Origin: Paenibacillus antibioticophila
Lineage (GTDB): Bacteria; Bacillota; Bacilli; Paenibacillales; Paenibacillaceae
Assembly (NCBI RefSeq): GCF_000455265.1
Contig: NZ_HG005139.1
Location: forward strand, 1,091,850-1,155,849
Reading direction: 5' to 3'
Length of the DNA: 64,000 nt
This document shows positions 60,632 through 63,534 of this stretch, piece by piece. The position numbers and the translations under genes were made by a program. Numbering within the stretch: position 1 is the stretch's first letter; the number at the start of each line of letters is the position of its first letter. The notes beneath the pieces were generated by a model, which saw nothing but the letters and a program-made list of their open reading frames with translations, had not been told where the DNA came from and ran no database searches.

Positions 60632-61318
60632 ATGGCTAAAACGTATTATGCAGAAGGTCGGCAAGTAGCCTATGTCCTCCGGGGCCTATTTATTCTTGGA
60701 GGTTTGGGAATCTATTTCAGCATTCCCGGTTTACATTGGGGATTCTTCTTTGGAATCCTGTTTGGTTCCGTTATTCTCGGTGAAATATTCGGCGGCATGT
60801 GGACTCGTAAGCGGCGAAAGGACAAAAAGGTAAAGAAGTCCAGCCGCACGAGTGGAGTGAGGCAAGTCAGTACAACCAAAGCTAAGAGTAGAGTACACAA
60901 TACATCGGCTAAGGCACCCATGAAGAAGTTGACAGATGCACAGCTTCTAAAAGCAGACGTAAGAACTTTGTCCGGCACGGATTTTGAGAGATTGATGGAG
61001 CTATATTACATAGATCAAGGCTACACCGTACAACGAGTCGGCGGTTCCGGCGATCACGAAGTGGATTTGATCCTCAAGGGCAAAGAGGGGTATAAAATCG
61101 CCGTGCAATGCAAGCGCTGGAAGCAGGATGTCGGAAATGACATTGTGCTGCGGCTCAAAGCCGGTAAGCAAGTACATGGCTGTTATGATGCTTGGATAGT
61201 GACGACGAGCAATTTTACGAAGGCGGCGAAAGAGGCGGCAGATAAGCTTAATATTAAGTTGATTAATGGGTTGTCGTTGGATGAAAGGTTGAAGAGATGG
61301 GATCGGATTGCCAAGTGA
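60632..61318 (+). CDS. Membrane-anchored Mrr-type restriction endonuclease
   Basis: The 228-residue protein has two N-terminal helices (VAYVLRGLFILGGLGIYFSI and WGFFFGILFGSVILGEIFGG) and a basic linker of Lys/Arg/Ser. A C-terminal Mrr_cat domain follows: GTDFERLMELYY, GGSGDHEVDLIL (Asp145) and IAVQCKRWKQDVG (Gln159, Lys161). This is the D...QxK variant of the PD-(D/E)XK nuclease. Mrr relatives cut methylated or foreign DNA; the membrane form is widespread in Bacillales and its role is unclear. The ATG follows GAGGTGG. Confidence 0.87.
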   Translation: MAKTYYAEGRQVAYVLRGLFILGGLGIYFSIPGLHWGFFFGILFGSVILGEIFGGMWTRKRRKDKKVKKSSRTSGVRQVSTTKAKSRVHNTSAKAPMKKLTDAQLLKADVRTLSGTDFERLMELYYIDQGYTVQRVGGSGDHEVDLILKGKEGYKIAVQCKRWKQDVGNDIVLRLKAGKQVHGCYDAWIVTTSNFTKAAKEAADKLNIKLINGLSLDERLKRWDRIAK

Positions 61319-61634: not shown

Positions 61635-61791
61635 GTGGACGTCATTATGATTCATGAGAATGAAATGTTTGTTATTGAATGCAAAGAAATTCGCTTACCG
61701 GCTCATTTCAATGCAAAACTAGTTCCCTTGGTTAGAAGAGGCTTTTGAAATCGCCAAGCGCGACAACAATCCTGTCTTCCTTTCTGTATAG
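61635..61791 (+). pseudogene. Decayed gene with an ECK nuclease-like motif (second relic)
   Basis: The first frame reads VDVIMIHENEMFVIECKEIR to a stop at 61746-61748. A shifted frame then gives EEAFEIAKRDNNPVFLSV and TAG at 61789-61791. D-x(n)-E-C-K is the core of PD-(D/E)XK nucleases. The pieces fit one frameshifted gene that has lost both ends. Confidence 0.45.
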
Positions 61792-61799
61792 CTAATCTG

Positions 61800-62112
61800 T
61801 TGATTCACACGTACCTGTCATTGATGAGAGGTTCGTGAAATTAATTTTGTTAAAAATGAATATTGGTAGGAGTATTTTTGTGGTGTAGGAAAAAATAAAA
61901 TATTCTTCCATTTTTTAATAATATGACTATAGTTTATAGGTACAAATTAAGTTATTGTTTATTCGTTTATTTAATTCCATTTTGTAGAATGACAAACTTC
62001 CTAAATATTATTTTATAGGAAAGCACGCACAAAATTTGATAAAAGAATGAAACGTATAATTTATAATAAATTGCAAATAGATAAAACTATTGAAATGTAT
62101 TGATATCTTGCT
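61800..62112. other. AT-rich spacer without a gene
   Basis: About 310 bases of very AT-rich sequence separate the nuclease relics from the fusion protein. A promoter for the fusion gene must lie here, but several TATAAT-like strings (for example TATAAT at about 62056-62061) make a choice impossible by eye. No repeat or hairpin stands out. Confidence 0.4.
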
Positions 62113-62124
62113 GGGGTGAAATTT

Positions 62125-63534
62125 ATGATAGATACATCAGATCTGCAAAAAACATTCAACGATTTAGTTAACTTTAATGAAGAAAACGTCAAAATTAAAG
62201 TAGTAATAGAATTATTTAACAGGTTGGGTTTTGAACGAAATAATTTTATTTTTGAACATCCTGTGTTTCATAGGGATAAAAGAGTTGATTTTATTTATGA
62301 AGATGAAAATAAATATCCAGTTTACTTTGAAACTAAAAGAGGTGATAAAGACCTTTCCAATAGAGATATTGTTCAATTAGCGGGTTATTTGCACATTAGA
62401 AATATTGAATGGGGGTTTTTGTGTAACGGTCAAAGACTTATTTTAATTAATGATAAAATCCAGCCTACAAGTCAAACTGAATCTTCCTTACAAGATAAAA
62501 TAGTATTTGATATTAATATTTACTCTAAGAGAGATAAATCAATTTTGAATTTAATTACTAAAGAAGCTCTATTACAATCAAAAATCACTAATTTTTATAG
62601 AGATATTGCTCAATTTAGAGCAATAAAATTTCCGTTAGGAAGTAAGAGTTGGAGCGTCTATAGAAGTACATTAATGGGCTTTTTTAATTTTTATTCAGAA
62701 CGTGTGAATAAATACAGAAAATTGGATGAAATACTCATTGATGATTTTGAAGAATATCTAAGAAATGATCAAATGAAAAAAGTCAATTCTAAGAAAAGTG
62801 TTAATTCAGAGCAAACTTTCAATAATAAATACTCACATTTACGTTCGATGTTAATAGAACTGAAGAAGAATGGAATTATTCAATCGCATCATTTTGATCA
62901 AGAAAGAAAAACGATGATTAGAATTCTTGATACTATGAATGTATCAAAATCTACTGAATCTCTAAGTTTAGAAAATTTAAACACTATTCTTGATTTCTTG
63001 AATGAATCAGATACTTTTGAAAGAGATATTTTAATAATACTATTATGTGTGTTTCTAGGGCTAGAACGATCCACCATAGTATCGTTAAAGTGGAGTATGT
63101 TTAATTCTCAATTAACCCAAATTAATCTATCAGATAGAATGTTGTGTCTGCCAACTCGTATTACTCGCTACTTAAAACGGCTGTATGAGGAAAATAAGAG
63201 AAATGGGATTAAAGGGGATTATTTATTTTATACAAGGTATTGGAGAAAATACAATTTATTAAGTGAATCTACGGTTAATTTGATATTTGATAAACTACAG
63301 AAAATAGATGAAGGTAATTCTAAGTGGAAAGTGTATTCACCGCAATTTATTCGAATGAATTTACCCAAAATCCTATTTCACAATGGATTTGCAATTGAAG
63401 AAATTTCTTATCTTTTAGGCATGGATCTGCAAAGTCTCTCAAACTTGATTACACATGAGGATATAATATCAAAGGTTAAATTGATTGAAAATAATCAAAT
63501 AAATAAACATCCATTTGGGGAGATTCTAAAGTAG
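62125..63534 (+). CDS. HsdR-like nuclease domain fused to a degenerate tyrosine-recombinase domain
   Basis: The 469-residue protein starts at ATG 62125, six bases after GGGGTG (GTG 62116 is the alternative). Residues 1-130 resemble the N-terminal nuclease of type I restriction subunits: RVDFIYED (Asp55), VYFETKRG (Glu69, Lys71), DIVQLAGYLH (Gln84) and WGFLCNGQRLILIN. Residues 175-260 look like a recombinase core-binding domain (SVYRSTLMGFFNFYSERVNK). Residues 280-450 follow the phage-integrase fold: VFLGLERSTIVSLKW (Arg315), a PTRITRYLKRL strand, then SPQFIRMNLPKILFHNGFAI (Arg410) and EISYLLGMDLQSLSNLITH. The HxxR His is Gln407 and the GH His is Met; the nucleophile Tyr is not at its usual place. 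Base use is much AT-richer than most of the window. The function is unknown. Confidence 0.75.
   Translation: MIDTSDLQKTFNDLVNFNEENVKIKVVIELFNRLGFERNNFIFEHPVFHRDKRVDFIYEDENKYPVYFETKRGDKDLSNRDIVQLAGYLHIRNIEWGFLCNGQRLILINDKIQPTSQTESSLQDKIVFDINIYSKRDKSILNLITKEALLQSKITNFYRDIAQFRAIKFPLGSKSWSVYRSTLMGFFNFYSERVNKYRKLDEILIDDFEEYLRNDQMKKVNSKKSVNSEQTFNNKYSHLRSMLIELKKNGIIQSHHFDQERKTMIRILDTMNVSKSTESLSLENLNTILDFLNESDTFERDILIILLCVFLGLERSTIVSLKWSMFNSQLTQINLSDRMLCLPTRITRYLKRLYEENKRNGIKGDYLFYTRYWRKYNLLSESTVNLIFDKLQKIDEGNSKWKVYSPQFIRMNLPKILFHNGFAIEEISYLLGMDLQSLSNLITHEDIISKVKLIENNQINKHPFGEILK

What the first reader, a model, noticed from the sequence alone, without database searches (positions are those of the whole stretch)
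62125..63534. Nuclease-recombinase fusion that has lost recombinase catalysis
Seen: an HsdR-type D...ExK...Q nuclease signature (Asp55, Glu69, Lys71, Gln84) in the first 130 residues, and a C-terminal half that follows the tyrosine-recombinase fold and keeps both arginines but not the HxxR His, the GH His or the Tyr. Known: active tyrosine recombinases need R-K-H-R-H/Y. Inference: the recombinase part is now a DNA-binding module that positions a nuclease, possibly in defence against integrating elements. Such a fusion is not one I know as a described system.
Basis: partly seen in the sequence, partly recalled or inferred. Interest (0 to 1): 0.75.

Follow-up and report, generated by a model that had tools for sequence, protein, structure and literature searches.

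The report
Nuclease steered by a dead recombinase
This bacterial gene joins a predicted DNA-cutting domain, whose active-site residues are intact, to a predicted recombinase fold that has lost its own cutting residues; the dead half likely now only grips DNA and would steer the nuclease onto invading DNA such as phage.

Summary
ORF 62125-63534 (469 aa) matches Pfam HSDR_N_2 and Phage_integrase. The model places residues 14-151 on HsdR and about 154-460 on Xer/Tn1549/Cre recombinases; a model of a divergent member agrees. The gene belongs to a rare two-domain family. In 27 aligned members the nuclease residues E19, D55, E69, K71, Y88 are invariant and Q84 is kept in 26; the recombinase Arg I column is acidic (19 Glu, 8 Asp) in 27 of 27, neither His nor the Tyr occurs in any, Arg II is kept in 24, and the hairpin-Lys stretch is missing in 22 of 22. 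So 'both arginines kept' is wrong: Arg I is E314, R315 is its neighbour. Copies are sporadic; 6 of 12 loci lie beside or near Wadjet, AbiD, AbiZ-like, PD-Lambda-3_B, PDC-M68 or Mrr genes, others do not. No relative was found in the phage, plasmid or viral-contig collections, nor such a fusion in ten paper searches. Best reading: a one-gene nuclease using a decommissioned tyrosine recombinase to bind DNA, likely anti-phage or anti-mobile-element. DNA target, cleavage and defence are untested.

The parts
62125..63534 (+). Two-domain gene, 469 aa: HsdR-type nuclease plus decommissioned tyrosine recombinase
   Evidence: family of 27 aligned members
62113..62119 (+). Likely ribosome-binding site GGGGTGA, 5 nt before ATG 62125 (an in-frame GTG lies upstream at 62116)
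   Evidence: Read from the sequence
62125..62523 (+). Nuclease domain, residues 1-133; motif E19, E44, D55, E69-x-K71, Q84-x3-Y88
62584..62919 (+). Core-binding (SAM-like) part of the recombinase, residues about 154-265
   Evidence: Phage_int_SAM_5 174-258; model helices
62950..63510 (+). Former catalytic part of the recombinase, residues about 276-462
   Evidence: Phage_integrase 280-432; fold matches
63064..63066 (+). Glu314 in the Arg I column: Glu in 19 and Asp in 8 of 27 members, Arg in 11 of 11 ordinary integrases
63352..63354 (+). Arg410, the kept Arg II (24 of 27 members)
63343..63345 (+). Gln407 in the HxxR His column (no His in 27 members)
63421..63423 (+). Met433 in the GH His column (no His in 27 members)
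63448..63450 (+). Ile442 in the nucleophile Tyr column (no Tyr in 27 members)
60632..61318 (+). Neighbour: 228-aa protein with a hydrophobic N-terminal segment and an Mrr_cat nuclease domain; a likely defence gene in the same variable slot
   Evidence: Pfam Mrr_cat 9.2e-26; PADLOC ZorD and PDC-S02 matches through that domain

Best explanation
This is a predicted single-protein nuclease that has all its HsdR-type active-site residues and ends in a predicted tyrosine-recombinase fold that has lost its catalytic residues, so the dead recombinase likely serves as a DNA-binding clamp that would bring the nuclease to foreign DNA. Shown by sequence: both domains, their union in every intact member found, the intact nuclease motif and the destroyed recombinase motif. 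Inferred from fold, charge and the MrpR precedent: the recombinase half still wraps DNA. Inferred from sporadic distribution and neighbours: the role is defence against phage or other mobile DNA. Assumed by analogy with type I and type IIG/IIL enzymes that share this nuclease fold: metal-dependent cleavage after DNA engagement, perhaps as a dimer on an inverted-repeat target. How it would spare the host is unknown; there is no methyltransferase in the protein, so its target is probably rare in the host or cutting needs a second cue.
For: Pfam domains above cut-off. Nuclease residues E19, D55, E69, K71, Y88 27/27 and Q84 26/27. Recombinase catalysis lost in 27/27, with an acid at Arg I; hairpin-Lys stretch missing in 22/22. 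All 16 hits of a search with the recombinase half alone carry PF13588, and 27/27 aligned members match HSDR_N_2. Two models with both folds. Recombinase half net positive, +9 to +18 in 21 of 22 sequences, +7 in a fragment; ordinary integrases +2 to +15. dN/dS 0.15 and 0.16 for the two halves in L007 against L008, on few changes. Full fusion in 4 of 394 genomes of the family. Defence-type neighbours at 6 of 12 loci. MrpR: recombinase fold turned DNA-binding repressor (PMC10516654, passages).
Against: No activity, target or phenotype is known. Three loci (L004, L006, L031/L050) show no dedicated defence neighbour. Neighbours were chosen by eye: 12 of the 20 I gave to PADLOC matched, against 2 of 10 control genes of the window, so enrichment is not tested. 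An acid at Arg I could weaken phosphate contact and so DNA binding. pTM of 0.60 and 0.57 leaves the placement of the two halves open. No common palindrome was found upstream of nine copies.
Confidence: 0.5

Rival explanations
1. The recombinase half recognises a DNA shape (junction, fork or bend) or a modified base rather than a sequence, making it a type IV-like or repair-type nuclease.
For: No methyltransferase in the protein and none among the 20 neighbours scanned with Pfam. Recombinases of this fold bind Holliday junctions in solved structures that the models match, such as 1kbu and 1z1g.
Against: MrpR, the solved dead relative by fold, binds a specific repeated element (PMC10516654, passages). 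No modified-base pocket was tested.
Confidence: 0.22
2. A selfish or homing-type gene: the nuclease cuts an empty site so that the gene is copied in.
For: At L004 the gene lies between a 169-nt duplication of the ytfJ start (82%), absent from the empty site of a relative. In the window's genome remnants of a yyaL-like gene flank about 8.9 kb that hold the gene.
Against: Insertion places differ (ytfJ; between rhaD-like and osmC-like genes; beside a prophage integrase; between lplA-like and a reductase-like gene), and no such duplication of 20 nt or more was found at L003 or L006.
Confidence: 0.1
3. A transcription regulator like MrpR with an added domain that no longer cuts; its job is control of a prophage or island.
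For: Same fold and loss of catalysis as MrpR, YopR and SroF. L031 has a unique 24+2+24 palindrome 79 to 29 nt before its start codon.
Against: Invariant nuclease residues in 27 of 27 argue for kept cleavage. The palindrome was above shuffles in only one of nine copies.
Confidence: 0.1
4. An ordinary integrase that still recombines, as two source names have it (integrase for P0004, XerD for P0014).
For: Those source names; PHROG integrase match.
Against: 0 of 27 members have Arg I, either His or the Tyr; hairpin-Lys stretch missing in 22 of 22.
Confidence: 0.02

Closest known systems
MrpR/YopR of Bacillus phage SPbeta (8a0a, 8bpz) and SroF of phi3T (9rd5, 9rgl)
   Different: MrpR keeps 3 of 7 catalytic residues, among them Lys and Tyr; here only Arg II is kept. 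The term 'nuclease' does not occur in the MrpR paper's main text. SroF is known to me from its PDB titles only.
Type I HsdR and type IIG/IIL restriction enzymes (3h1t, 2w00, BpuSI 3s1s, DrdV 7lvv)
   Different: No helicase, methyltransferase or specificity domain was matched in the protein; a dead recombinase follows the nuclease instead.
Xer, Tn1549 integrase, Cre and lambda Int tyrosine recombinases
   Different: Five of the six catalytic positions lost, with an acid at Arg I.

Membership tests
Active tyrosine recombinases | Core-binding plus catalytic-domain fold | tested here: met
Active tyrosine recombinases | Arg-Lys-His-Arg-His/Trp-Tyr set | tested here: not met
   Arg I acid 27/27, no His and no Tyr in 27, Arg II in 24; hairpin-Lys stretch missing in 22/22
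PD-(D/E)xK nucleases of the HsdR type | D...ExK with Q-x3-Y and the nuclease fold | tested here: met
PD-(D/E)xK nucleases of the HsdR type | DNA cleavage | not testable with these tools
   Needs purified protein
Type I or IIG restriction-modification | Methyltransferase and specificity parts in the protein or beside it | tested here: not met
   None matched in the protein, nor among the 20 neighbours scanned with Pfam; not every neighbour was scanned
MrpR-type dead-recombinase DNA binders | Recombinase fold with lost catalysis | tested here: met
MrpR-type dead-recombinase DNA binders | Binding to a specific DNA element | not testable with these tools
   Net positive half only
Anti-phage systems held in PADLOC-DB 2.0.0 | A model that covers the protein | tested here: not met
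   Only nuclease-half matches, mad2 1.1e-4 and Cas4 2.6e-4

The most novel reading that the evidence does not exclude
A new class of one-gene immunity in which bacteria turned an invader's own integrase into a weapon: a tyrosine recombinase stripped of catalysis, its phosphate-gripping arginine inverted to an acid, recognises integrase-type core sites of incoming mobile DNA and aims a restriction nuclease at them.
Probability: 0.22. Interest if true: 0.87.

Novelty: new variant of a known kind. Interest (0 to 1): 0.62.

Why it matters
Restriction-type nucleases are usually aimed by methyltransferase-linked recognition domains, helicases or guide RNAs (recalled). A nuclease aimed by a decommissioned tyrosine recombinase would be another route to DNA targeting, and it would extend the MrpR case of a recombinase fold reused for DNA binding. 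The family is small, one gene long and marked by an acid at Arg I, so the question can be tested with one protein and two mutants.

Tried and rejected
Ordinary integrase: rejected on catalytic residues. Known PADLOC system: no covering match. Phage- or plasmid-borne gene: no match in tblastn of 50,697 phage and 72,556 plasmid records, and four scans of viral contigs confirmed no relative; these scans reach only relatives that share the patterns used. Conserved operator upstream of the gene: of nine upstream regions only L031 exceeded the 95% level of its shuffles. Site-specific islet: flanking gene duplications at L004 and in the window's genome, none of 20 nt or more at L003 or L006. Empty site for the G430 copy: the genus sample held only that genome. 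Sequence match of the nuclease half alone to solved structures: only rows at E 0.68 or worse. Enrichment of defence neighbours: not tested fairly; 8 of 10 and 4 of 10 hand-picked neighbours matched PADLOC models, 2 of 10 control genes of the window did so through generic domains, and some neighbour matches are generic too (XRE of L004, acetyltransferase-like gene of L009). Literature: searches listed no paper whose title or abstract start names such a fusion; only passages of PMC10516654 and PMC4619093 were read, and the library lacks most subscription papers and all bioRxiv preprints as such. The fold searches list top rows only, so a family missing there is no evidence.

Full report
What is there. 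The window is G000:C1:1091850-1155849 of a 5.58 Mb genome. ORF 62125-63534 encodes 469 aa and has one match in that genome, itself. Pfam finds HSDR_N_2 at 18-111, Phage_int_SAM_5 at 174-258 and Phage_integrase at 280-432, above their curated cut-offs. PADLOC and NCBIfam give only weak matches (mad2, Cas4). PHROGs gives an integrase match over 175-402.

The family. Searches of about 5.8 billion proteins gave 13 proteins with the single sequence and 14 with a profile. A search with the recombinase half alone gave 16, each with PF13588 in its precomputed domains. With members from genome loci I aligned 27 sequences (P0001-P0022 and L004-L008), 26 of them after removal at 90% identity. Left out: L009 (cut by the contig start), L010 and L011 (fragments); L003, L014 and L031 stand as P0003, P0014 and P0016. 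HSDR_N_2 matches 27 of 27 and Phage_integrase 20 of 27.

Residues. Nuclease columns: E19, D55, E69, K71 and Y88 27/27; E44 and Q84 26/27. Recombinase columns against 11 ordinary integrases of relatives, picked from 16 because their motifs could be read: Arg I is R in 11/11 of them, but E (19) or D (8) in the 27 fusions. HxxR His: 11/11 against 0/27. GH His: 11/11 against 0/27. Tyr: 9/11 in the same column (the other two have it one column on) against 0/27 (Ile in 23). Arg II: 11/11 against 24/27. In that alignment the integrases have five or six residues around the hairpin lysine that are missing in 22 of 22 fusions. hmmsearch against archaeal Xer also puts E314 on Arg I, and hhalign of the two groups gives Prob 99.3, E 1.4e-20. 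A salt bridge between E314 and R410 is my inference.

Constraint and charge. L007 against L008 gives dN/dS 0.15 (nuclease) and 0.16 (recombinase half), on few changes. The recombinase half is net +9 to +18 in 21 of 22 sequences and +7 in the L010 fragment; the 11 whole integrases are +2 to +15. This fits kept DNA binding and does not prove it.

Where it sits. Of 394 genomes of the window's family, 225 match at E 1e-3, but only 4 (the window's own, G018, G362, G177) with the full fusion; the rest of the listed matches cover one half. In an even sample of 398 genomes of the class there is one further genome, in 398 of the phylum none further. In the window's genome about 11.9 kb lie between a RhaD-like and an OsmC-like gene; in G041 and G062 the same two genes are 3.7 and 4.1 kb apart with other contents. 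The slot holds an Mrr_cat protein, the fusion, a stretch that reads N, a kinase with AbiJ_NTD3 and a weak KAP/AAA NTPase. Elsewhere: Cohnella, beside an AbiZ-like DUF6161 gene and near a phage-type integrase; an Anoxybacillus MAG, beside a PD-Lambda-3_B-like gene; two Lachnospiraceae MAGs, second gene after Wadjet JetD (scanned in L007; L008 has near-identical genes), one also beside AbiD; Pontibacillus, where a fragment lies beside PDC-M68-like genes. With the window that is 6 of 12 loci (window, L003-L011, L014, L031/L050). L004, L006 and L031/L050 showed no dedicated defence neighbour (L050's neighbours were judged from their sequences only); L009, L010 and L014 are short or hardly scanned. 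I chose the neighbours by eye, so this is no test of enrichment; the control is in Tried and rejected.

How it likely works. The nuclease has the fold of enzymes that cut after another module engages DNA (HsdR, type IIG/IIL; what these do is recalled, the fold matches are). Here that module is a recombinase fold that cannot cut. MrpR shows that such a fold can lose recombination and act as a specific DNA binder; it keeps 3 of 7 catalytic residues (PMC10516654, passages). I therefore favour a self-contained nuclease aimed by a dead recombinase. Defence is the likeliest role given sporadic occurrence, island surroundings and at least one broken copy (L011). Recognition of att-type sites is the boldest reading that the evidence leaves open.

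Verdict.

Noticed in passing
L002:6079-9131 (right of the window): A KAP/AAA-like NTPase (603 aa) followed directly by a 413-aa protein with hydrophobic segments and no Pfam or PADLOC match; possibly a second, undescribed pair in the same slot.
   Followed up: no
L002:3508-5079: Protein kinase domain joined to an AbiJ_NTD3 domain, matching PD-T4-6-type kinases of PADLOC.
   Followed up: no
window 61717-61854 and L002:9499-9640: Two decayed, 76% identical remnants of what looks like a yyaL/DUF255 gene (name recalled) flank about 8.9 kb that hold the fusion; a 181-base probe from one found no other copy in the genome.
   Followed up: partly
L004:9584-12968: An insert of about 3 kb with the fusion, an XRE gene and small ORFs lies between two copies of the 5' part of ytfJ (169 nt, 82%); a relative (L054) has the site without it.
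   Followed up: partly
L031:1404-1453: Palindrome of 24+2+24 nt, one mismatch, 79 to 29 nt before the fusion's start codon; its outer 13-mer occurs nowhere else in that genome at up to one mismatch. A possible self-operator or RNA hairpin.
   Followed up: partly
BFVD entry A0A6J5NY69: A 396-aa phage protein named as a type I restriction R N-terminal domain protein is rank 10 of the viral fold search over 357 alignment columns, though with TM 0.29; perhaps a phage cousin of the arrangement.
   Followed up: no
L002, from about position 2850: The sequence reads N from about the right edge of the window for roughly 0.6 kb; an ORF seems to run into it. Left alone.
   Followed up: no
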